This document shows, piece after piece, positions 43,978-57,783 of a DNA stretch of 64,000 bases. A program made the translations under genes and the position numbers. This stretch comes from Thermomonas sp. HDW16 (lineage in GTDB: Bacteria > Pseudomonadota > Gammaproteobacteria > Xanthomonadales > Xanthomonadaceae), in NCBI RefSeq assembly GCF_011302915.1, contig NZ_CP049872.1:1488001-1552000 (forward strand), read 5' to 3'. A model generated the notes under the pieces. That model had not been told where the DNA came from, did not search any database, and was given only the letters and a program-made list of their open reading frames with translations. Position 1 is the stretch's first letter. The number at the start of each line of letters is the position of its first letter.

Positions 43978-43987
43978 GGGCGTGCGG

Positions 43988-45133
43988 ATGTCGCGCTTGA
44001 TCGGAGCCCGCGTTGTGGGACGCAACGCTGCCGCGCCAGCTTCCGAAGTGCGATCCTGGCTCGCATCCGTATTGTCCGATGGGCATGAGGCCATCGGACT
44101 TGGCGATCATTCGGCCGAAACTGTTGTTGCTGCGGCAGAAGCCGAGGGTGTGCTTCCTCTGCTGGATTGGCGCCTCCGCGGCAGGCGGGGGTGGGAACTC
44201 TTGCCGAAGCCATTGCAGCAGCGACTGCAGGGCGGGGCCCGCCAAGCCGCGATGACCACCTTGTTCCGGGAGCGCGAAATCCAGCGCATCGCGAAGGCAT
44301 TGGCAGATGCTGGCGCACGCGCCTTGCTGTTGAAAGGCAATGCGCTTGGGTTGTGGCTGTACCCCCAGCCCTACTTGCGCGTGACCAGCGATATCGACTT
44401 GCTGTTCTCCGATCGCATGGCGTTGCAGCAAGTATCGAGCGTTCTCTCGAAGATTGGCTACAGCATGGAACCGATGCCAGGCAGCACGATCCACGAGATG
44501 AAGGGCAGGCTTGTCATCGACGGGGGCAGTCGTTGTGAGCTGGACGTCCATGAGCGCCTGCTCAATGCGCCCGCCTATGCGGAGATATTCTCCTTCGACG
44601 AGCTGTGGCAAGGAGCAATTGACCTGCCATCGATAGACGTGGCAGTGAAGGCGTTGTCGCCCGGGCATGCGTTCGCGCATGCATGCCTGAATCGTGCGCT
44701 CGACATGCAGGTCGGCGAACCCGACCAGCTGAAGCTGCTCTACGACGTGCATCTCTTGTGCAAGCAGATGGATACAGCCTCATGGGAGGCATTCGCGGAA
44801 CTGACGCGGACAAAGCGGATCGCTGGAATTTGCCTGCGAACCCTGCAGGACGCATCAGAGGCATTCGGTTCAAGGGTGCCCGATGGGGTGGTGGATAAGC
44901 TTGGATCGCAAGCCGAGAATGAGCCCCTGGATTGGCGGGAGCTGCAGAATTGGCGTTACATGCAGTGGCAGAACCTGAAGGCGCTGCCGGATATGCGCGC
45001 GCGCATGAGTTGGTTATGGCAGCGGGTTTTCCCGACCCGCCAACAACTCCATGAGTTGCATGGCGACGGCAATTGGCTGCAACTGATCTGGCGGCGTTTT
45101 GCGCGGTTGCTATACAGGGTTTTCGGCCGCTGA
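43988..45133 (+). CDS. Nucleotidyltransferase family protein (PF14907-like)
   Basis: The 381-residue protein shows the nucleotidyltransferase signature of this family: LLKGNALGLWLYPQP followed by RVTSDIDLLFSD with paired Asp residues. Relatives occur beside lasso-peptide and HPr-kinase-like genes, which suits the location. ATG 43988 has GAGGG 7 nt upstream and is preferred over GTG 43982. It converges on the radical SAM gene with a 20-nt gap. Its substrate is unknown. Confidence 0.78.
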   Translation: MSRLIGARVVGRNAAAPASEVRSWLASVLSDGHEAIGLGDHSAETVVAAAEAEGVLPLLDWRLRGRRGWELLPKPLQQRLQGGARQAAMTTLFREREIQRIAKALADAGARALLLKGNALGLWLYPQPYLRVTSDIDLLFSDRMALQQVSSVLSKIGYSMEPMPGSTIHEMKGRLVIDGGSRCELDVHERLLNAPAYAEIFSFDELWQGAIDLPSIDVAVKALSPGHAFAHACLNRALDMQVGEPDQLKLLYDVHLLCKQMDTASWEAFAELTRTKRIAGICLRTLQDASEAFGSRVPDGVVDKLGSQAENEPLDWRELQNWRYMQWQNLKALPDMRARMSWLWQRVFPTRQQLHELHGDGNWLQLIWRRFARLLYRVFGR

Positions 45134-45153: not shown

Positions 45154-46239
45154 TCAGGCGACGATATCCAGTGGAATCTGCCGCATTTTCTTCTGCTGCA
45201 GGTTCTTCGACGGCACGCCCGTGCGGGCGTAGGACTTCTCGCAGTCCTGGATCGATGGGCCGCGCATGTTGCCTTCCATGTAGGCGAGCCCCGGGCATCG
45301 GCTGCAACTGCTGCCGTGCACGCAGGACGAACAACCCTGCAGGTCCGATACGCGGATCGCGCGCACTTCGTTCAATTGCGGCGAATCGCGCCAGATGTCG
45401 ATGAAGCCCTGCTCACGCACGTTGCCTACCTTGTACGGGAATTGCACGCAGGGGTAGACGTCGCCGTAAGGGGAGACATAGCACGCGGTGTGGCCCGCAC
45501 TGCAGGGCAGCGTCTTGTAGGCTTCTTCCAGTGGGGTAGGGCCGCTGGGTGGCGCCAGCACGCGATCCGCCTGGTCGCCCAGTAGTGTTGCATCGCGCAT
45601 CACCCCGGTCAGGCGGTCGGCATCCATGTTGAGGGAAACGATGGAGCGGTCGCCGTCCATCATCGGGGTGATGGTGGCATCCACCGTGTATCCGACGCCC
45701 ATCTCGTCCGCCAGCGCCTGCACCTGCTTGTAGTCATCGGCGTTCTGCGTCATGAGTACGTTGGCGAGCGTGACCTTGACCCCGGCGTCGCGGAGGAAGC
45801 GGACGCCTTCGATGGTGCGCTTGAACGAGCCCGGGAGCTTGGTGATGTCGTCGTGGGTGGCGGCATCGTGCGAATACAGGCTGACTTGCACCGAATCCAC
45901 GCCGAGCGCGGCGATCCGACGCGCCTTGGCCGCACGCACCATGACCGCATTGGTCTTGAGCTTGACCGAGAACCCCAGGGCACGAGCGCGCTCGACGATC
46001 TCGAACAAATCCGGGCGCATGAAGATCTCGCCACCGCTGATCGTGAGAAAGAACACCCCGGCGGCCGCCATTTGGTCGAGCAGCGCCAGGATTTCGGCGG
46101 TGTCCATCTCGCCGTGGTCTTCATGGTCGAGATAGCAATGGACGCAGCGCTCGTTGCAGCGGTAGGTGAGGTCGAGTTGCACGCTCAGCGGGAGGCCCAG
46201 CTCAAGCGCGCGCGCGCCCATCCGGTGCATCAGGCTCAT
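45154..46239 (-). CDS. Radical SAM/SPASM peptide-modifying enzyme
   Basis: The 361-residue protein has the radical SAM cluster CNERCVHC (C28, C32, C35), the ISGGE motif (68-71) and a C-terminal SPASM region. Its Cys are C246, C253, C264, C303, C306, C312, C315 and C333, enough for two auxiliary [4Fe-4S] clusters. Such enzymes (PqqE, AlbA, ranthipeptide synthases) make cross-links in ribosomal peptides. Being the last gene of a cassette with a PqqD-like protein and a candidate precursor suggests peptide maturation. Start overlaps the PqqD stop (ATGA). Confidence 0.93.
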   Translation of the reverse strand: MSLMHRMGARALELGLPLSVQLDLTYRCNERCVHCYLDHEDHGEMDTAEILALLDQMAAAGVFFLTISGGEIFMRPDLFEIVERARALGFSVKLKTNAVMVRAAKARRIAALGVDSVQVSLYSHDAATHDDITKLPGSFKRTIEGVRFLRDAGVKVTLANVLMTQNADDYKQVQALADEMGVGYTVDATITPMMDGDRSIVSLNMDADRLTGVMRDATLLGDQADRVLAPPSGPTPLEEAYKTLPCSAGHTACYVSPYGDVYPCVQFPYKVGNVREQGFIDIWRDSPQLNEVRAIRVSDLQGCSSCVHGSSCSRCPGLAYMEGNMRGPSIQDCEKSYARTGVPSKNLQQKKMRQIPLDIVA

Positions 46240-46544
46240 GCGCCGTCCCCGGTCGCCGTGAACGGCATGTCGCCCACCTGCAGAATCCCGCGTTCGGCCA
46301 AACCAAGTGCGAGTGAGCGGGCATCCTCCAGTGCGGTTGCGGGATCGATGTCGAACACCGGCGCGATCAACTGCGCCACGATATCGGCCAACGGGGTGAG
46401 GCCATCAGCGGCGTCCCACAGGATGGCGGCGGTTTCGTTGAGGCTGAACAATGACGAGTCATGCGCGGACATGATCATCAATTCGTCGCCGATGCGCCGA
46501 GCCGCCACGTTGCTGGATCGCAGGATGTAGAGAGAATCATTCAT
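46236..46544 (-). CDS. PqqD-like RiPP recognition protein
   Basis: The 102-residue protein has the PqqD fold pattern: FSLNETAAILWDAADG followed by a helix-rich second half. PqqD/RRE proteins bind leader peptides and present them to the modifying enzyme. ATG 46544 overlaps the kinase stop by ATGA; the stop overlaps the radical SAM start. Confidence 0.88.
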   Translation of the reverse strand: MNDSLYILRSSNVAARRIGDELMIMSAHDSSLFSLNETAAILWDAADGLTPLADIVAQLIAPVFDIDPATALEDARSLALGLAERGILQVGDMPFTATGDGA

Positions 46545-47386
46545 GGTTGTGCATCGATCATGTCCCACACGTGCGCATCAGGGACGAAGGTGAGCTTTCG
46601 CACGGGCACGCGCGATGCCAGTGCGATGGCATTGTCGAACACGCGAGCGGTTAGCGCGTCGTCGTTGGCGAAATACAGGATGTTGGCCATCAACGCACGC
46701 ACGGCGGCGGACGGCGTCAGCGTGTCGATCCGGTTCTCCTGGCCCTTGGCAAGCAGGAACACGCCAGCAAGTGGCGCGCGCAGGTTTTCCCCGGGACGTC
46801 CCAGCTCGCCCGAGAATGGCGTGCCGTACGCGAAATAACGGCCATCTTCCGGGCGCAGGAACGACATCTCGTCGGTCAGGATGTGACTGTGGGTTGGTGC
46901 CAGCCGCGAGATCGTGGTCTTGCCGGCCCCGGACACGCCGGTGAATGCCCAAGCCCGGCCACCGCTGACCACGCTGGAAGCATGCATCAGCATGCCGCCT
47001 TGTTCCGCGAGAAGCAGCGTGTGCAGGATACGGATCACCGAATCCAGTGAGTACGGACTGGGAACCATCCGTGCGCGGCCGTGGTGTGAGAGGGGATCCC
47101 ACTCCGCGAAGAAATCTCCGCGGCGCACCTGCCAGAGCGCACCGTTGCGCGACACTTCGACGGTGTCCTTGTGTGCGTCGATCCCGTCGCGTTCAGCTTC
47201 AGGCAGGAATGGGGTCAACTCGATGTCGAAAACGTGATCCGGCTGTGCCGCATCTCCCAGGAAGCCGTCGAAACGCCCTCGCATCTCGGCCACGAACTCT
47301 GGTGAGTCGGTGCGCAGGCGCACCCAGATGTCGCCGATGCCGACATCCAATTGGCCAGTCGCGTCACAAGTGCTGCAGTCGTTCAT
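46541..47386 (-). CDS. HPr-kinase-like P-loop protein
   Basis: A 281-residue protein resembling the C-terminal kinase part of HPr kinase/phosphorylase, as found in RiPP clusters. It contains GMLMHASSVVSGGRAW and a P-loop TGVSGAGKT (149-157). No PTS genes are present, so a role on HPr is unlikely. In lasso clusters related kinases phosphorylate a C-terminal Ser of the peptide; here the candidate precursor also ends in Ser. ATG 47386 overlaps the protease stop (ATGA). Confidence 0.82.
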   Translation of the reverse strand: MNDCSTCDATGQLDVGIGDIWVRLRTDSPEFVAEMRGRFDGFLGDAAQPDHVFDIELTPFLPEAERDGIDAHKDTVEVSRNGALWQVRRGDFFAEWDPLSHHGRARMVPSPYSLDSVIRILHTLLLAEQGGMLMHASSVVSGGRAWAFTGVSGAGKTTISRLAPTHSHILTDEMSFLRPEDGRYFAYGTPFSGELGRPGENLRAPLAGVFLLAKGQENRIDTLTPSAAVRALMANILYFANDDALTARVFDNAIALASRVPVRKLTFVPDAHVWDMIDAQP

Positions 47387-47883
47387 GCGAGCAGCGTCGC
47401 CAGTAAAGGCGCCCGGGAAAATAGATGGTGAATGGGGTTGATGCGCCGGATCAGCCAACGTGCAGCGCGCTGGCGCCGCAGCCAGTGGCGTCCACCCGCA
47501 TGTCGAAGCGTCGATGTGCCACGCTGCTGACCAACGAGGACGCCAAGGACATTGTGTGTGGCGACGGGGGCATCCGGCGCCGTGAGCGCATCGCCTTGGG
47601 TGAGCATCTCGTTGTCCTGGCGATGCAACAGGCGATGCGCGACCAGCCTCGCACCGTCCTGCACCAGCAATACCTGCCCAGGTGCGATGTCATCGATCAT
47701 GCAGGCGTGGAAATGCAGCAAGTCACCGGGTGCGATTGCGGGCAGCATGCTGCCACCGGTGGCGCGAATCGTAAGCTTGCCGAAGTTGGCGAGTACATCG
47801 CTGGCCAACCCGGCGCGCATACAGGTCGTGGGCGAGCCCACGACCGAGCCGACATTCACGAATTGCTCAACACGCGGCGGCAT
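47383..47883 (-). CDS. Signal-peptidase-like S24/S26 protease
   Basis: Up to 166 residues, with the nucleophile motif GGSMLPAIAPGD (S45) and a downstream VAHRLL (H83) plus LTQGDAL. A His rather than a Lys as general base would be the S26B/SipW-like arrangement. There is no strong membrane helix in view. It may remove the leader of the neighbouring precursor. The first ATG (47883) lies inside the precursor gene; ATG 47820, 36 nt after the precursor stop, is an alternative start that keeps the whole catalytic part. Confidence 0.8.
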   Translation of the reverse strand: MPPRVEQFVNVGSVVGSPTTCMRAGLASDVLANFGKLTIRATGGSMLPAIAPGDLLHFHACMIDDIAPGQVLLVQDGARLVAHRLLHRQDNEMLTQGDALTAPDAPVATHNVLGVLVGQQRGTSTLRHAGGRHWLRRQRAARWLIRRINPIHHLFSRAPLLATLLA

Positions 47884-48035
47884 TGATCCTGGACCTGACC
47901 GCGGATCTTGCCGCAGGCCAAGGCCATGGTCTCGAACACGCTTTCGTATTCGAAGGCGGGCTTGAGATAGGTGCGCTTACCCTTGGTGGTTTCTTGCGAG
48001 GGTGTTGAAGTGACTTGCGTGTCAGGCTGGTTCAT
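47856..48035 (-). CDS. Candidate RiPP precursor peptide, 59 residues, two Cys
   Basis: Read directly from the minus strand: a 59-residue frame from ATG 48035 to TGA at 47858. The N-terminus is Gln/Thr/Ser/Pro-rich and unstructured. A YLKP motif (Y23-P26) follows, resembling the YxxP leader motif that PqqD/RRE domains bind in lasso precursors. Then come FEYESVFETMALACG and a C-terminal part with C41 and C52, Arg/Lys/Gln-rich, ending in Ser-Asn-Ser. It stands directly before the protease, kinase, PqqD and radical SAM genes. Precursor role is inferred from size, motif and position; I do not recognise the family. Confidence 0.7.
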   Translation of the reverse strand: MNQPDTQVTSTPSQETTKGKRTYLKPAFEYESVFETMALACGKIRGQVQDQCRRVLSNS

Positions 48036-48069: not shown

Positions 48070-50363
48070 TCAATCTAGCGCGCTCTGGCTTGCTTGCACA
48101 GCATTGCCGGTGTTGCCGGTGTGCGAGAAGTAGATTTGCGATGCGCCCTGTTCGGGGCGGACGTTGTCCACCACGATGCCGCCGGTGCCGCCTGGTACGG
48201 CAAGTCCAGCGCTAGACACGTTGCTGGTGCCCCACGCCGCACCGGTGCCGCTGGCGCTTCCGTTCAGGTCGGAGAGGTTGAACATGTACAGGCAGGCTGA
48301 ACCATAGCTGCCGCTGCCGCAACCGTTAGCATCGCCATAACTCGCAATGCTGGCGTACAGATATTCGTTGCTGCCGTTCTTGACGAGGGTGACGGGGGAC
48401 AGGTTTTGAACGTTATCCGTGGTGCCATCGGCCATGTATCGATCACGTGCGCCGATCTCCGGGCCACGCACAGGCGATTGCATCACGCCGTTGACAATCG
48501 GAATTTTCCACAGCGTGGCGTAGAAGGTGTTGTCCGGTCGTCCCCCCACGATATACATCGCGCCGGAGCCAGTGGGGCTGTTGTAGAACGCATCGTCGAA
48601 TGTCCCTGCGTACAGGGCCCGCTCCGGGCCGTTGCCGCGACCGAGTTGTTGGCGAGAGCCCGTGCTGGCATCGGCGAAATTGGTGGGGAATTGAATCGCG
48701 GCGCGGCAGCCATCGATCTCGGCGGAGAAAAGCGTGCACCGGGCCGTGTCGGTATAAGTGAGCGTATTGTCGTTGAACACGAAGATGTAGACCTGGTTCG
48801 TGAACAGGTCGACGATCGGCGACTCGCGCAGGCCCGTGGTGCTCGCGCGTGCAAGTTTGGCGCTGGTGGCCTCGAGTGTTCCGGTGGCTGCATCTACACG
48901 GTACAGCTTGCCGCCGGCGGAGCCTGCGCCACTCTGGCTGCCGACGAATACCTTGTCGCCGGTGGACACCGGTGGCGATAGTTTCAAACCGGCTTCCAGG
49001 GTAAGCGGGAAGCCTCCCGCAACGACTTCTTGCGGATTGCCCTGGAACACCCCGGTGAACTTGTGCAGGCGACCGTTTCCATCGCCAGCCCAGAGGATAT
49101 CCCCGCTGTAGTCCACGAATGGGGATGAGTATGTGGGCGTGCTTCCCGTGTTGCTGGTGCCGTTGAAGGAAATGGCGTAATAGCAATTGCTTGCGCAGGC
49201 GCGGTACGCGGCCGCGCTCAGCGACTGTACGGGCGTGGCCGGTGCTGAAGCCGATCCACTGCCGGCCAACGGCTTGAGCAGCACCAGTTGCAGAGTGTTG
49301 CCATTACGCTGGACGAAGGCGACTTGCTTGCCGCCATCAAGGTAGGACAGGACCGGCGAGGTCTCGGTGATATAGCCGTTGCCAGTCGTGTACGACCACA
49401 TGACATTGGGCGCCTTCACCGCGCCGTTCTGGTTCCAGCTGCCAACACAGCCGCCTGCACCCTGATAGAGCTGGTTGAAGGCGATAGCGGTAGGCTGGCC
49501 AGCGGTACCACTGCCGTCCGTACCAGAAAGGTTGAAGTCGCTGTCGAGTGTTTCGCTGACTGAGCCGTTCGCAATATTGCCAGTGGTGTTTGAGGTGATG
49601 GTCACGCTCGCGCCACTGCCGCCAGCACTGAACCCAGTCTGGCTGCTCCAGCGATTGATGGCATTGCGCAAGTTATTGCCGCGAGCCGTGTTCGAGATGC
49701 CGTTTGTTAGGAAGTTGGTGCCGGTGTTGTCTGACGCGCTTGAGGTCAGCACTACTTGGCGTACGCCAGCTGGGCCAAGCGTGACAGTGCGATCAGTGCC
49801 TTGTGAGGGATTGCCGTTAAAAGTTCCGGTCCAGGTTTCCTGGAGGCCGCTCGAGGAAGCGCCCGCTGCATTCGTGGTGTACACCACGAAGTCGTTGGTG
49901 CAGCTCGGCGCGGCCGTGATATCGAAGTTGTACTTCGCCGGGAAAATGCCGGTGGTGCCGCTGCCGCCTTGGCCATCGGTGCCGCCGCCGAGCACGTTGC
50001 TCCAGTCACGCAGCATATTGCCGGTGGATTGTTGGCCACCACCACCACGGGGGGGCGGGTGCGGTCAGGGCCAGGTGCCCGCTGCCGGCCAGGAAGAGCC
50101 TTGGCTTGGCGAAGGGAAGGCGTCTCGCTTTCGATCCGACGCAGTACCGAGGCAACATAGCGCGGGTCGCGGTACAGCACGCGCATATCCGCACTGCGGC
50201 CAGCAGCTTCCAATTCATCCGGTGCAAGCGGCTGGCGATGGATCACCGCACGGCTGCTCCAGTCCTGCGGTGCGCCGATCGGTGTTTCCGCGGCCTGCAC
50301 CCAGCCGATCCCGGCAATGCCCAAAGCCAAGGCACCCGCGATCCTGCATCCAACATGCTTCAT
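48070..50363 (-). pseudogene. Secreted beta-propeller-like protein, frameshifted
   Basis: The start at 50363 (GGGGGAAG just upstream) gives a signal peptide (IAGALALGIAGIGWVQA) and about 100 residues. At a run of seven G at 50049-50055 (C on the coding strand) the frame breaks; with one more C it continues as RGGGGQQSTGNMLRDW. The following 640 residues are Gly/Ser/Thr/Asn-rich with repeated segments such as SPVLSYLDGGKQVAFVQ and SPPVSTGDKVFVGSQSG, resembling a PQQ/PilY1-type propeller, but I do not recognise a named family. It ends 34 nt before the candidate precursor and may be co-transcribed with it. Confidence 0.65.
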
Positions 50364-50695: not shown

Positions 50696-51886
50696 TCAAT
50701 CGCGGCGTGGTGCGTGCGCGGGATCCGGGCCGTATTGGCCCGAGACGCGCGTGACCCATCTTAGGGCGACATGTTTCGTCGGGAACCTGCCGGGGAACCG
50801 TGCCTGGATTGCCTCGGCGATGTCACCCAGCGGCTGCGAAGTCGCCATGCCCTGCAGGATGGCAAGGTCGATCAGTCCGGTTTCCCCAAGTTCGGGCACA
50901 TGGTCTTCCGCAGCCAGTCGCGCACGTTGTGCAACCGGCTTGGAATTGAAGGTCGATTGCCGGAAACGTGCCTTGGGCGATCCCGTGGCGGAGGTGATGC
51001 TCGTATCCCATTGATAGACGGGTGCGTCGTCCATCGTCACTGCCGCCAACCTGACCTTCGCCATGTCACCAGGTTCCAGCGCAACCTCCCGCTCGAGAGG
51101 GAAGAATGCGCGGCCATAGGCGATCGAAGGCAACAGCGGCGTGTTGCTGATCTGCAAGCCTTCGCCCAGTTCGGTATCGAACCAGACATAATAGCCGTGC
51201 ATGGTCGTTGGGCGCTCGATCGTCCACTCGGCACTTCCGCGCAGGGAGGAGGTTTCGACGGTCATGTAGTCAATGTCGCCCCAGTTCACCGGCGTCCCCA
51301 GGAGGCTGGTTGCGTCCACCGAATCTCCGCGAACTTTCCACCAGCTGTTGGCGATCCAACGTCGCGCGGCACTGAAATCCACGCCATATTCGTTGTTCTG
51401 CCAAGGCTTGCGCACAGAGTCGTACTCGGCATCGGCGCACGCAGGCGCCACGTACATCCGATCGCGGTGGGGCAACAGCATGCCACCGGGCTTGAGGTGG
51501 CGGGTGCGCGCGTCCTTCAGTGATTCGATGTTGCGCTTGTAGAACGGCAGGGTGCCGTGCAGGTCGCCGATCACCACATCAACGCGTTCCGGCAAATCGA
51601 TGTCCGTGGACAGGCCCTGGATCCACTGGATACGATCCGCGTTGATGTTGTTCGCCGCGCACAGGCGCGCTATTTCGATAGCGTCGTCGGGCTCGATGGC
51701 GTAGATGTGGGCCGCGCCCTGTTGCGCGGCGATGAAGGCGAACAGTCCGGTGCCGGTGCCGATGTCGAGCACGGCCGATCCGGGTTTCACCGCGCGCCTC
51801 AGCGCCTCCACGTAGGGGCGAGTGCGCCGCTGGTCGATCACCATGCCGCCATAATTCGAGATCGTATAGTCGTTGAAACTGGGCAT
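50696..51886 (-). CDS. PRMT-like SAM-dependent methyltransferase of the lasso cluster
   Basis: The 396-residue protein has the N-terminal YGGMVIDQRRTRPY and motif I VLDIGTGTGLFAF (39-51) of the protein arginine methyltransferase-like fold, and a beta-barrel-like C-terminal half. The usual two Glu of the PRMT active-site loop are not apparent: the matching stretch reads DLHGTLPFYKRN. The nearby lasso core contains no Arg, so arginine methylation of that core is impossible. It could methylate a carboxylate, another residue, or another protein. It starts 3 nt after the kinase gene. Confidence 0.75.
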   Translation of the reverse strand: MPSFNDYTISNYGGMVIDQRRTRPYVEALRRAVKPGSAVLDIGTGTGLFAFIAAQQGAAHIYAIEPDDAIEIARLCAANNINADRIQWIQGLSTDIDLPERVDVVIGDLHGTLPFYKRNIESLKDARTRHLKPGGMLLPHRDRMYVAPACADAEYDSVRKPWQNNEYGVDFSAARRWIANSWWKVRGDSVDATSLLGTPVNWGDIDYMTVETSSLRGSAEWTIERPTTMHGYYVWFDTELGEGLQISNTPLLPSIAYGRAFFPLEREVALEPGDMAKVRLAAVTMDDAPVYQWDTSITSATGSPKARFRQSTFNSKPVAQRARLAAEDHVPELGETGLIDLAILQGMATSQPLGDIAEAIQARFPGRFPTKHVALRWVTRVSGQYGPDPAHAPRRD

Positions 51887-51889
51887 GGC

Positions 51890-52981
51890 TCAAGATCCGG
51901 AGGCTGGCGTGGGCGCATGCGCTGCGGTGGCGATGGGCATGGCCGATACATGGGCTTCGATCAGCGACGCGACGTCCGTCATCGCGTCGTAGCGGCGCGG
52001 ATAGGCGAGGCGGCAGGCAGGCAGCATGCGAGCCACTTCGCTGCACATGTGCAGATGGGTGGCCATGCGCCGTTTGTCGCCCGGGTCTAGCTGGAATGAA
52101 TGGCGGATCAGGGCCAGGCAGCTTTCGGCGGCCGTCATCGGGGTGAGGGGCGCCGCATTTGCAGGGGCGGCATTGTCCAGCACCAGGAATCCATCGATCG
52201 GAAGCGTTGGCAAGCCGGTATCGACGGCTTGCGGGACTACGCGCTGCTTGGAGGAATAATGGGCCATCGGCCGCATGTCGGTGCCTGCCGGATACAGCGC
52301 TTCGATGCTGTCGGGCAGCAGGCGCAGGCTGGGATAGGTGGGCGTTGCAAGCGCGAGGCTGCCATCCAGTTCGACCAGCGTGCAGTCGTCGGATCGCAGG
52401 GTGTGGCCACGTACTGCAAGGAAACCGGACAGCGTAGATTTGCCGGCGCCGCTCTTGCCCAGGATCAGCACGCATTTGCCACCGATGACCAGGGTGCTGG
52501 CATGCAAGGACAGCATGCCCTCATGTGCCAAGTAGCGCGGCAGCACCTGGTCGATCAGCAGGTGCTCGAGGGTGGCGTCGTCGGTACTGGCGTTGCGCTG
52601 GATGATGCTGATGCGCGAGGCATGCGGTTGCAGCAGGAAGTCTGCGAGATCCGGGAAGCGGAGTAGGTAGCCGTCGCCTTGGCGAGCCAGCGAGAGGACG
52701 ACGGCGTTGTCGTCGGTCCAGTGGTGGTGCCAGCTTTGTGGCTCAAATAACTGAGGCGCTTCGACGATTTCGATCGTCTTGCCTACGGCTCTTGCCATCG
52801 CATAAGCAAGTGAACTCAATGCCGTTTCACTGGCGATCCACCAAGGGCCGAATTGCAGTTTGGGATGCGGCAGACGAGGTACGCCAGATTGGTCGAGCGG
52901 AAATTCACGTGCGGCATGGAGCGTTGTTGCAGCGGACGTTGGCGAGTTGCTCGAGGCCCGCCTTTGATGGGCGCTCAGCAC
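51890..52981 (-). CDS. HPr-kinase-like protein of the lasso cluster
   Basis: The 363-residue protein is of the same kind as the kinase-like protein at 46.5 kb: EGMLSLHASTLVIGGK and P-loop GKSGAGKST (175-183). Homologues (ThcoK, PadeK) phosphorylate the C-terminal Ser of some lasso precursors. Here the precursor ends in Cys, so that reaction cannot occur in the same form. GTG start 52981 overlaps the precursor stop (GTGCTGA), so the two are coupled. Confidence 0.8.
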   Translation of the reverse strand: MLSAHQRRASSNSPTSAATTLHAAREFPLDQSGVPRLPHPKLQFGPWWIASETALSSLAYAMARAVGKTIEIVEAPQLFEPQSWHHHWTDDNAVVLSLARQGDGYLLRFPDLADFLLQPHASRISIIQRNASTDDATLEHLLIDQVLPRYLAHEGMLSLHASTLVIGGKCVLILGKSGAGKSTLSGFLAVRGHTLRSDDCTLVELDGSLALATPTYPSLRLLPDSIEALYPAGTDMRPMAHYSSKQRVVPQAVDTGLPTLPIDGFLVLDNAAPANAAPLTPMTAAESCLALIRHSFQLDPGDKRRMATHLHMCSEVARMLPACRLAYPRRYDAMTDVASLIEAHVSAMPIATAAHAPTPASGS

Positions 52982-53163
52982 ATATTGAAAGTGTTATTGA
53001 TGTTGCCGTTGCAGGAGCCATTGTTGCCGTCCGAATCCTCAGCGCCAACCATTGATCCGGTTTCGGTCAATGCCCGGATATCACCCAGTATTGTCAGCAT
53101 GGGGCGCGCGTAGTTCAGGCGAATGACGGCGTTGTCTGATGTATTTGCGGTGATCTTGTCCAA
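52975..53163 (-). CDS. Lasso peptide precursor with two Cys in the core
   Basis: A 62-residue peptide starting at TTG 53163, supported by an AGGGGG ribosome-binding sequence 6 nt upstream. The leader has the YxxP...L...G pattern (Y18, P21, L23, G27) and Thr33/Thr35. The core begins at G36 or T35. With G36 the ring acceptor would be E42 (position 7) or D43 (8); with T35 it would be position 8 or 9. The remaining core is Asn/Gly-rich with C51 and C62, the last residue. A disulfide is possible. The stop overlaps the kinase GTG. Confidence 0.85.
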   Translation of the reverse strand: MDKITANTSDNAVIRLNYARPMLTILGDIRALTETGSMVGAEDSDGNNGSCNGNINNTFNMC

Positions 53164-53390
53164 GAGGCCCCCTGTCGGTTACATCGGATGCGATGCGTGT
53201 GTGCAGTCTCAGCGCAATCTTATTACCTTTCCAGTCTATTTGTGAGCCAGATCAAGTTTTACCCTAAAATGCCCGAGAAGGTCGTTCAGGATTCGGCGAG
53301 GCGCGATTGATTCGCGTAGTGCCTGATGCGTGTTTCTGCGCTTCGCATGCTTGTTGCGGAGATGCATCGTGTGGCCCACCCCCTGCCGTT
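53164..53390 (-). promoter_or_regulatory. Upstream region of the lasso precursor
   Basis: A 227-nt stretch between the cyclase stop and the precursor. It probably gives the precursor its own promoter, since precursor peptide is needed in excess. A weak sigma-70-like CTCACA-17-TAAGAT can be placed near 53217-53245 on the minus strand. The assignment is tentative. Confidence 0.4.
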
Positions 53391-55280
53391 TCAGCGACAC
53401 GTGCCAAGTCGGGACGCAAGCCATTGATCCAGAAGCACGATTCGCAGCATTGTTGGGGTGTTCCGCCAGTGTTCGGCTGATACTTGCAGCTTATTTGACG
53501 CCACGTATGCGGCAACCGGGGATGTCTGCAACTGTTCCGGCAGTGGAACCGGCAGGCCTTGCAGTAAGGTTGCGCTGAATGTGGCGCCCAGGTGTTCCTT
53601 GCCGGGTCGCCACAGCACCTCGGGCGGCAGCAGGTCGCGCATCGCCTGCCGCAGAATCCATTTGGGACGACCGTCCCGCAGCCGCAAATGCCAAGGGACG
53701 CGTGCCTGGAAGGCGATCAGGTCACGATCCGTGAAGGGTGGCCGTGGTTCGATGCCGAAGTGCGACGCGATCCGGTTGTAGCGTTCGATCCCGGCGGTGA
53801 TATAGGCCACGCCCAGGCTGCTTTGCAACTTGGCATCTGGGCTGAGCTGTGCGTGTTGGGCGATGTTCCGGCGGTAGCGTCGGAAACGACCTTGCAGGTC
53901 GACGCGGATCGTGAATGCGGGATCGATCAAGCTGGCTTTGACCAGCCCCGCAAATTCCTTTCGCTCGCTGCGGATATGCCGGACCTGCATCAGTCCCTCG
54001 GCCAGCAGGCCACCAGGCAAGCGCATGGCAGCCTTCAAGCCAGCCCAGCGCGGACTGGAATACGCCGCGATGTACTCCCGCTTCACCTGCCAGGCCGCAC
54101 GCCATTGTCCGCGGCGCACCAGTGCGTGGTCGTAGCCGGCGGTGGTGAAGAAATTGTCCGCCGGCACGCCGTCCATCAGGCTGCGAACGCCTGCCCGCGA
54201 CGCCGAATGGAACACGCTGGCACCCAGAACCATGGTGCCGTCGAAGGGTTCCCCCATGCGCTGCCACCATTCAAGCAGGACGGGCGCGAGCGCATCCATG
54301 TCCTTGAGGTCAGTCAGGTGTCCATTGCTGTGCGTAGCGGCAAGCACTGCGTGGACTGCAGCGGTTTCTGCGCAGCCCGGATCCCGCGAGTTGATTGCGG
54401 AAAAGCTCGGGAATCGTGGTTCGTCTGCTTGCTGCCGCAATCGACCGGCAAGCGCCACTACCGAGGAGGAATCCAGCCCGCCGCTGAGCATCGAACCCAC
54501 CGGGTGCTGGCTGCGCAAGCGCAGTTGAACGGCGCGCTGCAGTTGCTCGCGTTGGGCTTCGATCCATTCGTCGTCTGTCGTGGGTAGCCCGGTCAGCTGA
54601 TCCTGTAGCGGATGCCAATACTTGTCCTGCCGTAGTCGGCCATCGTGCCACTCCAGCGTGTGCGCCGGCGGCAACCGCTGGACGGACAGGAAGAAGGTTC
54701 TGGTGGCGTCGATGCCTTCGGTCTCTCCGATCAGGGCGTCTGCGATGCGGCCTTCATCAAGGTTGCGGTCGATGCCGCCATGGGCGAGTACCGCATCCGC
54801 GCTGGACGCGAAGGCGATCAGTTGTCCGGGTCGATGATGCAGGTAGAACGGGCGCACCCCCATCGGGTCGCGTGCGCAGAACAGGCGGTGCTCACGCGGA
54901 TCCCAGAGGGCGAAGGCGAAGTCGCCACGAAGTCGATTGGCACAGTCGCGCCCCCAGTGTTGCCACGCGGCGTGCAGGAGTTCGCCGTCGCCGATGGTGT
55001 CCGGATGGCCGTTGATGCCGAGTGCGCGTAACAGCTGCAGCCGGTTGTCGAGGCGGGAGTCGGACACCACGACGCACCCGGTCTGCGAGTGCTGCCAAGG
55101 TTGCGGAATGCGGGATTCCGGGGTGGTTACCAGCAGTGTTCGCCCAAGTGCCGCGTTCTCGCCTCGCCAGGCATGGCTACCATCGGGGCCACGTCGCTGC
55201 AGGGTGGCGAGCATGGCATCGACACGCGTACCCGCTGCCGGTGCGCCATCGAGATTGATGAATCCGGCGATCCCGCTCAC
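53391..55280 (-). CDS. Lasso peptide cyclase (asparagine synthase-like)
   Basis: ATP-dependent macrolactam-forming enzyme of the asparagine synthetase B family, 629 residues. The N-terminal glutaminase-like domain has Ser at position 2 instead of the catalytic Cys, so it should not use glutamine as ammonia donor, as in other lasso cyclases. The synthetase domain has the pyrophosphatase loop SGGLDSSS (266-273). Start is GTG 55280. It lies 40 nt after the B2 gene, and the precursor follows it, an unusual order. Confidence 0.93.
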   Translation of the reverse strand: MSGIAGFINLDGAPAAGTRVDAMLATLQRRGPDGSHAWRGENAALGRTLLVTTPESRIPQPWQHSQTGCVVVSDSRLDNRLQLLRALGINGHPDTIGDGELLHAAWQHWGRDCANRLRGDFAFALWDPREHRLFCARDPMGVRPFYLHHRPGQLIAFASSADAVLAHGGIDRNLDEGRIADALIGETEGIDATRTFFLSVQRLPPAHTLEWHDGRLRQDKYWHPLQDQLTGLPTTDDEWIEAQREQLQRAVQLRLRSQHPVGSMLSGGLDSSSVVALAGRLRQQADEPRFPSFSAINSRDPGCAETAAVHAVLAATHSNGHLTDLKDMDALAPVLLEWWQRMGEPFDGTMVLGASVFHSASRAGVRSLMDGVPADNFFTTAGYDHALVRRGQWRAAWQVKREYIAAYSSPRWAGLKAAMRLPGGLLAEGLMQVRHIRSERKEFAGLVKASLIDPAFTIRVDLQGRFRRYRRNIAQHAQLSPDAKLQSSLGVAYITAGIERYNRIASHFGIEPRPPFTDRDLIAFQARVPWHLRLRDGRPKWILRQAMRDLLPPEVLWRPGKEHLGATFSATLLQGLPVPLPEQLQTSPVAAYVASNKLQVSAEHWRNTPTMLRIVLLDQWLASRLGTCR

Positions 55281-55320
55281 GGGATCGGATCAATGGATGG
55301 GGCGGGCACGCGCTGCCGCT

Positions 55321-55758
55321 TCATGCGCGATCACGTTTCAGGAAGGGCGCATGAACAAGCGCTGTTTGCCCCAAGGCCTTGCCGTCGAGTTCAACCCACG
55401 CATGTGCATCGAATCGCCCTTGTTCGCGTCGTCCGCCGAGGCGTAGTTCAGGAGCCAGTCCCTTCCTCCGCAGCTGCCAGTAAACCAGCAAGGCTTGCGG
55501 CAAGCAGTTGGTGGAGAGCGGTCCGTGGGCGCCAGCCAAGGTGGTGAGCTGGGCGAGCCGTTCAGCGGATTGCACGTCGTCTGCCGTTGCATTGCGAATG
55601 CAGGCGTGGCGGCTTGTGTGTTCGATCAGGCGCAGGGTGCCGGAATAGCCGCGCATCGACAGCAGCGACGACATCATCGGCAAGCTGCACAGCACGAGCA
55701 GGAATTGCCGGCGCTCCGGGGCGGGCAGTCGCAGCCAGCCTTGCAGCCTTGCGCCCAC
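55321..55758 (-). CDS. Lasso peptide leader protease B2 (transglutaminase-like)
   Basis: The 145-residue protein has the catalytic Cys-His-Asp triad of B2/McjB-type proteases: C85 in STNCLPQAL, H119 and D125 in DAHAWVELDG. It removes the leader before cyclisation. Start is GTG 55758, one base after the B1 stop, so B1 and B2 are coupled. Length matches stand-alone B2 proteins. Confidence 0.92.
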   Translation of the reverse strand: MGARLQGWLRLPAPERRQFLLVLCSLPMMSSLLSMRGYSGTLRLIEHTSRHACIRNATADDVQSAERLAQLTTLAGAHGPLSTNCLPQALLVYWQLRRKGLAPELRLGGRREQGRFDAHAWVELDGKALGQTALVHAPFLKRDRA

Positions 55759-55759
55759 T

Positions 55760-56053
55760 TCACTCGATTCGGATCAGGCCGGCATCAAGCAGGTCGCGTG
55801 CCAATGCCAGCAGGTCGCTTTCCAGTTGCGCGGCGTCGACATCGTATTCGCGCAGCAGCTGCTCGAATGCTACTTGCATGCCCGGATCGTGGCTGACCAA
55901 CTCCCAGAAGCGTGTGCCGACGGCATCCAGCCCGAAATAGCGCTCGCTGGCCAGGTCCAGGATCACGGCCTCGCCATTGAGTTCCTGGAACAGGACGTCA
56001 TCGGGAACCGTCACGCGGCTGGATAGAGTGACGTTTGCGGTCGTTGCGGTCAT
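55760..56053 (-). CDS. Lasso peptide recognition protein B1 (PqqD-like)
   Basis: The 97-residue PqqD-fold protein with the segments VILDLASERYFGLDAVGTRFWEL and a helical second half. It binds the leader (YxxP motif) and delivers the precursor to B2. Start is ATG 56053, close to the divergent exporter. Confidence 0.92.
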   Translation of the reverse strand: MTATTANVTLSSRVTVPDDVLFQELNGEAVILDLASERYFGLDAVGTRFWELVSHDPGMQVAFEQLLREYDVDAAQLESDLLALARDLLDAGLIRIE

Positions 56054-56097
56054 GCTTCCACGCGATGCTGCGGGGCTTACAGACTAGGCGAGGGCGC
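56054..56097. promoter_or_regulatory. Short divergent control region
   Basis: Only 44 nt separate the divergent ATGs of the B1 gene and the exporter. A GGCGAGGG ribosome-binding sequence precedes the exporter. Promoters for both sides must overlap coding sequence or each other; no clear -35/-10 is visible. Confidence 0.35.
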
Positions 56098-57783
56098 ATG
56101 TTCGGTAAAGAGGAGGCAGGGAGGGCGGACGGATTCCCGCTGTTGATGGCGCTGCTGCGTCCACGGCTCCCGGTCTTGCTGGTGTCGTTGGCCCTGATGC
56201 TGGTGCAAAGCATCGCGACGCTGGCCCAGCCTTGGCTGGGCGGCGTGCTGACGGATCGCCTGTTGCTTGGTGCCGGCGTTGGTCCCTTGTTGTGGGTGTT
56301 GTTCGGCCTGATCCTGGCGCAGCAAGCCCTCGGTTATCTGGTCTCGATCCAGTTGCAGGCAGTATCCGGGCGTTTGGTATCGGACGCCGGCAGTCATGTG
56401 TACGAGCACTTGCAATCATTGCCGATGAGCTGGCATCACGAGCGGCAACGCGGCGACGTGCTGGCGCTGCTCACCGGTGATGTCTACCGTCTTGGGAATT
56501 ACGTCACCGGGACGCTGGTTCCGTTGGTGCCCTTGCTCTTCACTTTCGTTGGCGCGCTGGTGATGATGTTGCGGGTCGCACCGGCGATCGCGATCGCCGT
56601 TGGCGTGCTGATGCCGGTTTTGTTCATTTTGTTGAAGCTGGTGGGTCGCCGATTGCGGCCGCTATCGCATCTGGCGATGCAGGCTTGGGCCGACCAGGCC
56701 GCCATGGCGGAGCAAAACCTCTCGATGCTTGCGGTGATCAAGGCATTCGCCACGGCTCCGACAGAGGCAAGCCGTTATTCCGCACGTGTCGAAGACGTGC
56801 GTGAGATCGATCTCCGTCGATCAAGGCTGGAAGGCGCCATCGCCCCCGTCGTTCACGTGCTTGGCGCAGGCGCGATCCTGTTGCTGCTGGGGACGGCTGG
56901 CCACTTTGTCGCGCGCGAGGAAATGCGCATGGGTGAGTTGGTCAGTTTGCTGCTGTATGGATTGGTGCTGGTGAGTCCGGTCAGTCAGCTGGCGCGCGTT
57001 TATGGCAGCACGCAAGCAGCGCGAGGCACGGCGCAGCGCATGTTGACCGCACTGCAGGCGGTGCCGGAAGCGGATGAAGGCGCGCGCGATTTTGACGGCG
57101 TGCGCGGGGAGGTGACGTTCGAGCGCGTCGATTTTCGCTACCCAGGGCGACCAGTCCTGTTGCAGGGATTCGATCTGCGCATCGCGGCCGGCGAGACGGT
57201 GGCATTGACGGGCTCCAATGGCGCGGGAAAGAGCACGTTGATGCACTTGCTGCTGCGGCTGGTCGAACCTGGGTCCGGATGCATTCGCATCGACGGCATC
57301 CACCTGCGCGATTACCGCTTGCCCGCCCTTCGCGAGGGCGTGGGCCTGGTCGCGCAGCAGGTCATGCTGTTCAACGCCACGGTGGCGGAGAACATCGCCT
57401 ATGGCCATGCTGGTGCTGCACGCGAGCAGATCGAGGCTGCGGCGCGCGCTGCCCGTGCCCATGATTTCGTCACGGTGCTGCCGCTAGGTTACGACACCGT
57501 CGTCGGTGACCAAGGGGTGAAATTGTCTGGCGGACAGAAACAGCGCATCGCATTGGCACGCGCCTTGCTAAAAAATCCTCCTATCCTGATCCTTGACGAA
57601 GCTACCGCGATGTTCGATCCCGAAGGCGAAGCTGAATTCATTGCTGAATGCCACGACGTGATCAAGCAACGCACGGTGATCCTGATCACCCATCGCCCGG
57701 CCAGCCTGGCCTTGGCGGATCGGGTGTTGAGGCTGGAGCAGGGACGGTTGGTGGCTGCGGTTACGCTCGAAGGCGGCACATGA
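56098..57783 (+). CDS. ABC transporter, probable lasso peptide exporter
   Basis: The 561-residue protein fuses a six-helix membrane domain (first helices at about 20-70) to an ATPase with Walker A GSNGAGKST (372-380), signature LSGGQKQ (476-482) and Walker B ILILDEAT. Such half-transporters export mature lasso peptides and give immunity (McjD type). ATG 56098 is chosen for its ribosome-binding sequence; an in-frame TTG at 56035 would overlap the B1 gene. Divergent to the biosynthetic operon. Confidence 0.88.
   Translation: MFGKEEAGRADGFPLLMALLRPRLPVLLVSLALMLVQSIATLAQPWLGGVLTDRLLLGAGVGPLLWVLFGLILAQQALGYLVSIQLQAVSGRLVSDAGSHVYEHLQSLPMSWHHERQRGDVLALLTGDVYRLGNYVTGTLVPLVPLLFTFVGALVMMLRVAPAIAIAVGVLMPVLFILLKLVGRRLRPLSHLAMQAWADQAAMAEQNLSMLAVIKAFATAPTEASRYSARVEDVREIDLRRSRLEGAIAPVVHVLGAGAILLLLGTAGHFVAREEMRMGELVSLLLYGLVLVSPVSQLARVYGSTQAARGTAQRMLTALQAVPEADEGARDFDGVRGEVTFERVDFRYPGRPVLLQGFDLRIAAGETVALTGSNGAGKSTLMHLLLRLVEPGSGCIRIDGIHLRDYRLPALREGVGLVAQQVMLFNATVAENIAYGHAGAAREQIEAAARAARAHDFVTVLPLGYDTVVGDQGVKLSGGQKQRIALARALLKNPPILILDEATAMFDPEGEAEFIAECHDVIKQRTVILITHRPASLALADRVLRLEQGRLVAAVTLEGGT

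What the first reader, a model, noticed from the sequence alone, without database searches (positions are those of the whole stretch)
45154..48035. Candidate undescribed radical-SAM RiPP system with an unrecognised precursor
A 59-residue Cys-containing peptide gene is followed by an S26-like protease, an HPr-kinase-like protein, a PqqD-like protein and a radical SAM/SPASM enzyme on one strand. The set has everything a RiPP needs: precursor, recognition, modification and cleavage. I cannot match the precursor or this gene combination to a named class. Genes and motifs are seen; the pathway is inferred.
Basis: partly seen in the sequence, partly recalled or inferred. Interest (0 to 1): 0.88.

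Follow-up and report, generated by a model that had tools for sequence, protein, structure and literature searches.

The report
Radical-SAM peptide cassette with secreted propeller
This bacterium carries a small conserved gene set that appears to make a chemically modified, phosphorylated peptide of a kind not yet described, and the set usually comes with a secreted propeller-shaped protein that may be the peptide's partner outside the cell.

Summary
On the minus strand of a Thermomonas genome lie a 59-residue peptide gene, an S26-type peptidase, an HPr-kinase-like protein, a PqqD-type RRE and a radical SAM/SPASM enzyme, in overlapping frames. All five are present in 48 of 54 close loci from Lysobacteraceae, Burkholderiales and Acidobacteriota. 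A precursor profile from acidobacterial loci alone finds the window's peptide at E=4e-18 among 1131 frames; the next hit is 0.1. In 49 aligned precursors Y, P, A-L, C, K, a second C and the final Ser never vary.

The nearest described family is LPP (PMC13381572, Bacillota): same RRE motif, peptidase type, HprK-like kinase and NTP transferase, but no radical SAM enzyme. This is a radical-SAM variant of that chassis, not an LPP member.

In an even sample of 247 Acidobacteriota it occurs in exactly the 5 genomes with this radical SAM enzyme; of 8 cassette genomes with no propeller beside the cassette, 7 carry it elsewhere.

The parts
47856..48035 (-). Precursor peptide, 59 aa: leader with YxKPxF and FET motifs, core with Cys41 and Cys52, C-terminal Ser59
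   Evidence: 49 aligned rows; Y23 P26 A38 L39 C41 K43 C52 S59 invariant.
47928..47969 (-). Leader recognition stretch from Y23 to T36 (RRE motif YxxPxF, then FET)
   Evidence: compare the LPP leader YxxPxVLxHQxIxFETxxS (PMC13381572). Spacing is Px7F here, Px9F in LPP.
47859..47915 (-). Conserved core Cys41-Gly-Lys ... Cys52 ... Ser59, the probable modified part
   Evidence: second Cys at +10 in 43 of 49 rows (+11 in the window); last residue Ser in 49 of 49.
47383..47883 (-). S26-type (archaeal/ER signal peptidase-like) peptidase, 166 aa, Ser45 His83 Asp98 Asp104
   Evidence: these residues invariant in 33 rows (window plus 32 of 51 peptidases); profile hits SEC11 2.9e-10.
46541..47386 (-). 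HPr-kinase/PEPCK-fold protein, 281 codons from ATG, His135 Lys156 Asp172 Glu173
   Evidence: residues invariant in 38 rows (window plus 37 of 54); model pLDDT 90.2; PEPCK and HprK/P matches.
46236..46544 (-). PqqD-type discrete RiPP recognition element, 102 aa
   Evidence: PF05402 7.9e-12; profile hits TbiB1 3.4e-10 and LppB (9x8z) 3e-4; N36 in 30 of 34 rows, D74 in 33 of 34.
45154..46239 (-). Radical SAM/SPASM enzyme, 361 aa, CX3CX2C plus seven further invariant Cys
   Evidence: PF04055 3.3e-24, PF13186 2.4e-12; nearest solved relatives SkfB and PqqE; 23 rows (window plus 22 of 54).
48070..50363 (-). Secreted beta-propeller gene (signal-peptide start ATG at 50363); the window copy is split between two frames near 50.0-50.06 kb, by a C7 run
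   Evidence: family A4; unsplit relatives exist; co-occurs with the cassette.
43982..45133 (+). NTP_transf_5 nucleotidyltransferase-like protein, convergent with the radical SAM gene; possible accessory tailoring enzyme
   Evidence: PF14907 3.5e-33; an NTP5 homologue lies in the fetched flank of 28 of 54 loci, on either strand.
56035..57783 (+). MsbA-like ABC exporter beside the lasso cluster; candidate shared exporter (inference)
   Evidence: ABC_membrane, ABC_tran; an MsbA-like gene also lies downstream of the cassette in L016, L061 and L122.

Best explanation
A RiPP operon built on the lasso/LPP chassis with a radical SAM enzyme as an added tailoring enzyme. Proposed course: PqqD binds YxKPxF in the leader; the radical SAM/SPASM enzyme uses Cys41 and/or Cys52 to make thioether (sactionine- or ranthionine-type) links in the core; the HprK-like kinase (poly)phosphorylates the invariant C-terminal Ser59; the S26-type peptidase, with the leader presented by PqqD, cuts within residues 36-40; the NTP_transf_5 protein may add a sugar or nucleotidyl group to the phosphate; an ABC transporter exports the product. 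Outside the cytoplasm the peptide acts with the operon's secreted beta-propeller. Shown here: gene set, conservation, catalytic-type residues, fold of the kinase, co-occurrence with the propeller. Inferred: every chemical step and its order, the cut site, export, and the propeller pairing. Rough odds: RiPP system 0.93; S26 leader removal 0.85; Cys used by the radical SAM enzyme 0.75; C-terminal Ser phosphorylated 0.7; functional propeller pairing 0.6.
For: Five-gene set in 48 of 54 loci. Precursor invariants in 49 of 49 aligned rows, final Ser included; of 15 further distinct precursor hits outside that alignment 13 end in Ser, the other 2 being partial matches whose frames run off elsewhere. 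Catalytic-type residues invariant in kinase (38 rows), peptidase (33) and radical SAM enzyme (23). PadeK-type kinases phosphorylate a C-terminal Ser that is extremely conserved beside such kinases, and PsmN adds hexose to the phospho-Ser (PMC9266682, passages). In LPP an S26-type peptidase removes an RRE-presented leader after FET (PMC13381572). RRE residues N36 and D74 correspond by motif and spacing to LppB N33 and D70. Propeller: the same 9 of 60 relatives as the cassette; 5 of 5 cassette genomes against 0 of 242 others in Acidobacteriota; elsewhere in the genome in 7 of 8 cassette genomes with no propeller beside the cassette; precursor-propeller pairs without enzymes in the fetched stretch in three genomes.
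Against: No product, mass or cleavage is known. The residue after Asp172 is Glu, where lasso kinases are reported to have a His-Lys-Asp-Asp motif. In LPP the kinase acts on core Ser3, not on a C-terminal Ser. Leader spacing (Px7F) differs from LPP (Px9F). In 16 of 54 loci an ABC-2 permease, not the propeller, lies in the flank, and 9 more have neither (three to four of them cut at contig ends). One cassette genome (G068) has no propeller match, nor has G088 with a divergent cassette. Of 15 propeller copies fetched away from a cassette, 12 have no precursor beside them. Three loci (L046, L047, L062) show no precursor although the sequence has no gap there. The window's own propeller gene is frame-split and may be inactive. 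Row L044 lacks the second Cys and runs on.
Confidence: 0.62

Rival explanations
1. The mature peptide is a structural subunit, ligand or cofactor of the secreted beta-propeller, as the thioether-cross-linked gamma-subunit is of quinohemoprotein amine dehydrogenase (QHNDH), rather than a free natural product.
For: Co-occurrence with the propeller; 22 of 24 adjacent loci measured, all gaps at most 155 bases; a [precursor + propeller] unit doubled in L055 and L059 with an unrelated DNRLRE-propeller; precursor-propeller pairs without enzymes in the fetched stretch. QHNDH precedent: small peptide, radical SAM thioethers, 28-residue leader, serine protease, ABC export (PMC7876137, passages).
Against: No quinone, haem or redox motif was tested for; a kinase or NTP transferase is not mentioned in the QHNDH passages seen; 12 of 15 propeller copies away from a cassette have no precursor beside them.
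Confidence: 0.25
2. A phosphorylated and cross-linked free peptide, secreted as a signal or antibiotic; the propeller is an immunity, binding or delivery protein.
For: ABC-2 permease in the flank of 16 of 54 loci without the propeller; variable core interior against a fixed leader motif; patchy presence and nesting of the Pseudomonadota sequences inside Acidobacteriota, which suggests transfer.
Against: Core length, both Cys and the last Ser are nearly fixed over two phyla, more than I would expect for an arms-race toxin (judgement).
Confidence: 0.3
3. The peptide is trimmed to a small redox cofactor (PQQ- or mycofactocin-like) used by the propeller.
For: PqqD plus a SPASM enzyme with sub-cut-off similarity to mycofactocin and PqqE models; propellers are common partners of PQQ (recalled).
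Against: The window core has no Tyr/Glu or Val/Tyr pair of the kind used there (recalled motifs); a conserved C-terminal Ser and a kinase have no role in such trimming; scores are far below the PqqE and mycofactocin cut-offs.
Confidence: 0.08
4. The peptide becomes attached to surface polysaccharide through its phosphorylated Ser and the NTP transferase.
For: The window cassette lies beside a polysaccharide locus (28-44 kb, three of its genes scanned); LPP and paeninodin clusters often lie in capsule loci (PMC13381572); PsmN hexosylates the phospho-Ser.
Against: Polysaccharide genes were not tested for in the relatives; I know of no glycan-linked peptide in these families (recalled).
Confidence: 0.15

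Closest known systems
Linear polyphosphorylated peptides (LPP; Popov et al. 2026, PMC13381572)
   Same: Discrete RRE and YxxP leader motif; F-E-T ahead of the core; S26/SipW-type Ser-His-Asp peptidase; HprK-like kinase; NTP transferase; neighbouring kinase-bearing lasso cluster and polysaccharide locus.
   Different: A radical SAM/SPASM enzyme; two Cys and an invariant C-terminal Ser in a short core (LPP core 45 aa, phospho-Ser3); Px7F not Px9F spacing; a beta-propeller partner; found in Pseudomonadota and Acidobacteriota, while the paper calls LPP restricted to Bacillota. 'radical' and 'SPASM' occur 0 times in its main text.
Paeninodin-type phosphorylated lasso peptides (PadeK/ThcoK; pseudomycoidin PsmK/PsmN; PMC9266682)
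   Same: RRE motif, HprK-like kinase, conserved C-terminal Ser, NTP transferase.
   Different: No macrolactam cyclase or B2 peptidase in the cassette; radical SAM enzyme and S26 peptidase instead.
SynChlorMet (Scm) cassette of NCBIfam (TIGR04248-04251)
   Same: HprK-like ScmC, PqqD-like ScmD and SPASM enzymes ScmE/F; weak hits of all here.
   Different: Scores far below cut-offs (25.1 of 125, 17.7 of 100, 105 of 400 bits). That its description names no S26 peptidase is recalled. No paper with the word was found.
Sactipeptide/ranthipeptide maturases (SkfB, StsB, PapB)
   Same: Nearest solved relative is SkfB (9e-25); Cys-containing core.
   Different: Usually no HprK-like kinase or separate RRE (recalled); linkage not demonstrated here.
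Quinohemoprotein amine dehydrogenase gamma-subunit pathway (QhpC/D/E/F; PMC7876137)
   Same: Small peptide with radical SAM thioethers, leader protease and ABC export, then joins larger proteins.
   Different: Subtilisin-like protease and tryptophylquinone there; analogy only.

Membership tests
LPP | Leader with YxxP RRE motif | tested here: met
   Y23 and P26 invariant in 49 rows.
LPP | Px9Fx[T/A] spacing before the cut site | tested here: not met
   Px7 then F/Y, E/V, T/V/I in 49 of 49 rows; FET in 28 of 49.
LPP | S26/SipW-type peptidase with Ser, His, Asp | tested here: met
   S45, H83, D98, D104 invariant in 33 rows.
LPP | HprK-like kinase, NTP transferase, discrete RRE in the cluster | tested here: met
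   Kinase and RRE in 54 of 54 loci; NTP5 in the fetched flank of 28 of 54.
LPP | Ser at core position 3, the phosphorylated residue | tested here: not met
   If the cut is after FET, position 3 is Leu39, invariant in 49 rows. Phosphorylation itself cannot be tested here.
LPP | RRE falls in the LPP clade | not tested
   LppB was the fifth-best solved relative (3e-4) behind lasso and PQQ RREs; no RRE tree was built.
Lasso peptide | Asn-synthetase-like cyclase and B2 transglutaminase-like peptidase in the cassette | tested here: not met
   None of the cassette genes matches them; those at 53.4-55.8 kb belong to the separate lasso cluster.
PadeK-type C-terminal Ser kinase | His-Lys-Asp-Asp motif | tested here: inconclusive
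   His135, Lys156, Asp172 invariant, Glu173 next; no alignment to PadeK was made.
PadeK-type C-terminal Ser kinase | Precursor ends in Ser | tested here: met
   49 of 49 aligned rows; 13 of 15 further distinct hits.
SynChlorMet cassette | Scm models above curated cut-offs | tested here: not met
   ScmC 25.1/125, ScmD 17.7/100, ScmE 105/400 bits.
PQQ / mycofactocin | PqqE or mycofactocin radical SAM model above cut-off | tested here: not met
   109.5/381.35 and 144.6/265 bits.
Radical SAM/SPASM peptide maturases (broad) | CX3CX2C and SPASM domain | tested here: met
   PF04055 and PF13186 above cut-off; 10 Cys invariant in 23 rows.
Sactipeptide or ranthipeptide | Cys-to-carbon thioether in the product | not testable with these tools
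   Needs mass spectrometry or NMR.

The most novel reading that the evidence does not exclude
A radical-SAM-modified, C-terminally phosphorylated peptide is the dedicated partner (ligand, cofactor or subunit) of one family of secreted beta-propeller proteins, so that one set of maturation enzymes serves several precursor-propeller pairs in a genome, some encoded far from the enzymes.
Probability: 0.25. Interest if true: 0.86.

Novelty: new variant of a known kind. Interest (0 to 1): 0.68.

Why it matters
It suggests that the recently described LPP chassis, or a close relative, is not confined to Bacillota and combines with radical SAM chemistry, giving RiPPs that would be both cross-linked and phosphorylated. 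The link to one secreted propeller family gives a testable lead to function for a group whose roles are reported as unknown (LPP and paeninodins, PMC13381572). Precursor, enzymes and partner are small enough to test in E. coli.

Tried and rejected
PQQ, mycofactocin, Scm, GeoRSP and WgkB as the family: all hits far below curated cut-offs. A 'CGK' analogy with the WGK (tryglysin) radical SAM RiPPs was considered because of the C-G-K of the core and a WgkB hit of 118.4/650 bits; kept only as a lead. Three cut sites: before Cys41 by the A-X-A rule of signal peptidases (A38 invariant, position 40 small in 47 of 49, Arg in 2), after FET as in LPP, or after A38 by distance from the RRE motif: not decidable from sequence. 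Lipoprotein reading of ALAC: rejected, no hydrophobic stretch before it (sequence). First thought of the upstream gene as a PilY1 remnant: dropped; it is a conserved secreted beta-propeller family with no Pfam or NCBIfam family above cut-off in the copies scanned. Its model is of moderate quality (pLDDT 75.5); the top fold matches are glycoside-hydrolase/neuraminidase-type and BamB-type propellers with query TM-scores of about 0.3 or less, so no function was read from it.

Limits and dropped rows. Alignment A1 holds the window and 48 of 49 phmmer hits; L044 was left out because its frame runs on without the second Cys. Of the 54 loci six lack one or more of the five core genes: L017, L019 and L024 are cut at contig ends; L046, L047 and L062 show no precursor although no N run lies there. 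Alignments A2, A3, A5 and A6 hold the window and 37 of 54, 32 of 51, 22 of 54 and 33 of 54 sequences; A4 holds 21 of 22. Loci L011 and L061 come from one isolate. Genome searches scored only some first-look candidates per genome: at most 5, 3, 8, 17, 26, so weak copies can be missed. G000 and G060, the centres of the samples, are themselves cassette genomes and are counted in the 9 of 60 and 5 of 247. The precursor was found in 6 of 247: the same five and G088, which has a divergent cassette without the A4 propeller. Where the genes are adjacent, co-occurrence is not independent of shared descent; no probability is claimed.
Full report
What is there. The window lies in a one-contig genome (G000) of the same genus as G020, which is Thermomonas beijingensis (L015 and G020 are the same stretch). 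On the minus strand five frames follow each other: precursor (47856-48035), S26-like peptidase (47383-47883), HprK-like kinase (46541-47386), PqqD (46236-46544) and a radical SAM/SPASM enzyme (45154-46239). Precursor and peptidase overlap by 28 bases, the later junctions by 4, as in a coupled operon.

Is the peptide real? A scan of genome contigs with the radical SAM protein gave 64 loci. In the 54 close ones (L011-L064) kinase, PqqD and radical SAM enzyme are present in 54 of 54, the peptidase in 51 and the precursor in 48; all five in 48 of 54. Of the other six, L017, L019 and L024 are cut at contig ends; L046, L047 and L062 show no precursor although no N run lies there. Alignment A1 has 49 rows (48 distinct; the window and 48 of 49 phmmer hits, L044 left out because its frame runs on without the second Cys): Y23, P26, A38, L39, C41, K43, C52 and the final S59 are invariant. 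The second Cys is 10 residues after the first in 43 of 49. A profile from 38 acidobacterial rows only finds the window peptide at 4.2e-18 among 1131 frames, next best 0.1. A precursor was found in 30 of 30 cassette genomes searched. Outside A1, 15 further distinct precursor hits were seen; 13 end in Ser, and 2 (in L125 and a second one in L083) are partial matches whose frames run off elsewhere.

What the enzymes are. Kinase: PEPCK/HPr-kinase superfamily, model pLDDT 90.2, best PDB matches PEPCK (1.4e-8), HprK/P at 2e-4 to 1e-3; H135, the P-loop K156, D172 and E173 are invariant in 38 rows. Peptidase: S45, H83, D98 and D104 invariant in 33 rows; best solved relatives are the ER signal peptidase subunits SEC11 (2.9e-10 to 1.7e-8). 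PqqD: best solved relatives are lasso RREs TbiB1 (3.4e-10), 9x90 (PbaB1, 1.1e-7) and TfuB1 (1.3e-7), then PqqD (1.3e-5); LppB of the LPP family (9x8z) comes fifth at 3e-4. Radical SAM enzyme: CX3CX2C and seven further invariant Cys in 23 rows; best solved relatives SkfB (9e-25) and PqqE (7e-18).

The nearest described system. Popov et al. 2026 (PMC13381572; abstract, sections 4, 6, 7, 10, 11, 12 and 16 read, plus found passages of others) describe LPP in Bacillota: precursor with YxxPxVLxHQxIxFETxxS, discrete RRE, SipW-like peptidase that cuts after FET when the RRE presents the leader, HprK-like kinase that phosphorylates core Ser3, NTP transferase and MsbA-like exporter, often beside a paeninodin-type lasso cluster and capsule loci. 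The window repeats that setting: a polysaccharide locus at 28-44 kb (three of its genes scanned) and a lasso cluster at 50.7-57.8 kb with its own HprK-like kinase. RRE residues N33 and D70 of LppB have counterparts N36 (30 of 34 rows) and D74 (33 of 34) here, placed by motif and spacing. But the spacing is Px7F in all 49 rows, not Px9F; there is no Ser at core position 3; and the radical SAM enzyme is extra: 'radical' and 'SPASM' occur 0 times in that paper's main text. So it works on the same chassis but I do not file it as an LPP member.

Phosphorylation site. A review (PMC9266682, passages) reports that PadeK specifically modifies the C-terminal Ser, a site extremely conserved in precursors next to such kinases, that a His-Lys-Asp-Asp motif is needed, and that PsmN installs hexose on the phospho-Ser. 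The invariant final Ser here beside an HprK-like kinase, with an NTP_transf_5 gene near, fits that rule. The Glu after D172 may be a departure.

The sixth component. The upstream gene encodes a secreted protein (signal peptide read from the sequence) with a beta-propeller (model pLDDT 75.5; propeller matches with query TM about 0.3 or less; no family above cut-off). It is in the flank just ahead of the precursor in 24 of 54 loci; 22 of these gaps were measured, from -35 to 155 bases. Co-occurrence: in 60 relatives (G000 included) cassette and propeller are found in the same 9 genomes; in 247 Acidobacteriota drawn evenly (the centre G060 included) the radical SAM enzyme at 1e-100 and the propeller at 1e-30 occur in the same 5 genomes, and 0 of the 242 others have the propeller; in 369 genomes of the window's class only G000 has either precursor or propeller. 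These counts partly reflect adjacency and the searches scored only the best few candidates per genome. The stronger point is in trans: of 21 cassette genomes 18 have the propeller; of the 8 with no propeller beside the cassette (G067-G074), 7 carry it elsewhere (in G074 one piece lies about 13 kb away on the same contig), and G068 has none. G075 and G076, the other two without it, have a different propeller beside the precursor. Of 15 propeller copies fetched away from a cassette, 3 (in G069, G070, G071) have a precursor directly beside them with no maturation enzyme in the fetched stretch, 12 have none. In L054, L055, L056, L058 and L059 a different, DNRLRE-plus-propeller protein follows the precursor, and in L055 and L059 the precursor-propeller unit is doubled.

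Other architectures. Sixteen loci have an ABC-2 permease and no A4 propeller in the flank; 14 of the 15 that are in the tree fall in one clade of 17 rows (97/97; L029 is elsewhere; L057 was too short for the tree). The 11 Pseudomonadota rows form a supported group (100/99) inside Acidobacteriota as the tree is drawn, which suggests transfer into Thermomonas and Burkholderiales. L130 shows a divergent relative with a B12-binding radical SAM enzyme added.

Reading. I take it as a RiPP operon that makes a short Cys-cross-linked, C-terminally phosphorylated peptide, cut by an RRE-dependent signal-peptidase-like enzyme and working with a secreted propeller. Gene content, conservation, residues and co-occurrence are computed results; chemistry, cut site, export and the pairing are inference. 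The QHNDH gamma-subunit (PMC7876137, passages) is a precedent for a radical-SAM cross-linked peptide that joins larger periplasmic proteins; it is an analogy only.

Print status. Nine searches of the held library listed no paper whose title or abstract start describes this precursor or an HprK/PqqD/S26/radical SAM set; four papers were opened (PMC13381572, PMC9266682, PMC7876137, PMC13361665, the last three as passages). Subscription papers and preprints are mostly not held, so absence is not proven.

Noticed in passing
window 50696-57783: Lasso cluster: candidate precursor 52975-53163 (lasso leader model just below cut-off), HprK-like kinase, PRMT-like methyltransferase, cyclase, B2, B1 and an MsbA-like exporter. 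The precursor ends in Cys, not in the Ser expected beside a PadeK-type kinase.
   Followed up: partly
window 49990-50070: The propeller gene is split between two frames near a C7 run; the G001 and G011 copies also come as pieces. Could be assembly error, decay or phase variation. Described only.
   Followed up: partly
L130:3652-9174: Divergent cassette with NTP5, HprK, PqqD, radical SAM enzyme, precursor ending in Ser, a B12-binding radical SAM enzyme and S26 peptidase, without the A4 propeller.
   Followed up: partly
L079, L083, L084: Precursor-propeller pairs without maturation enzymes in the 8-kb stretches fetched, in genomes whose cassette lies on another contig.
   Followed up: partly
L055:8175-13585, L059:8175-13674: Tandem duplication of a precursor plus DNRLRE-propeller unit.
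   Followed up: no
L066:1857-11453: Omnitrophota locus with a frame of S26-like N-terminal look, PqqD, a Cys-rich 69-aa peptide, radical SAM frames, ScmC-like kinase and an exporter-like frame: a possible link to the SynChlorMet cassette.
   Followed up: partly
L121:3711-3920: Lone precursor gene, without propeller or cassette enzymes in the 9-kb stretch.
   Followed up: no
L064:3138-4697: A secreted-looking, possibly propeller-like frame on the opposite strand upstream of a cassette that has neither the A4 propeller nor the ABC-2 genes in the flank (judged by eye).
   Followed up: no
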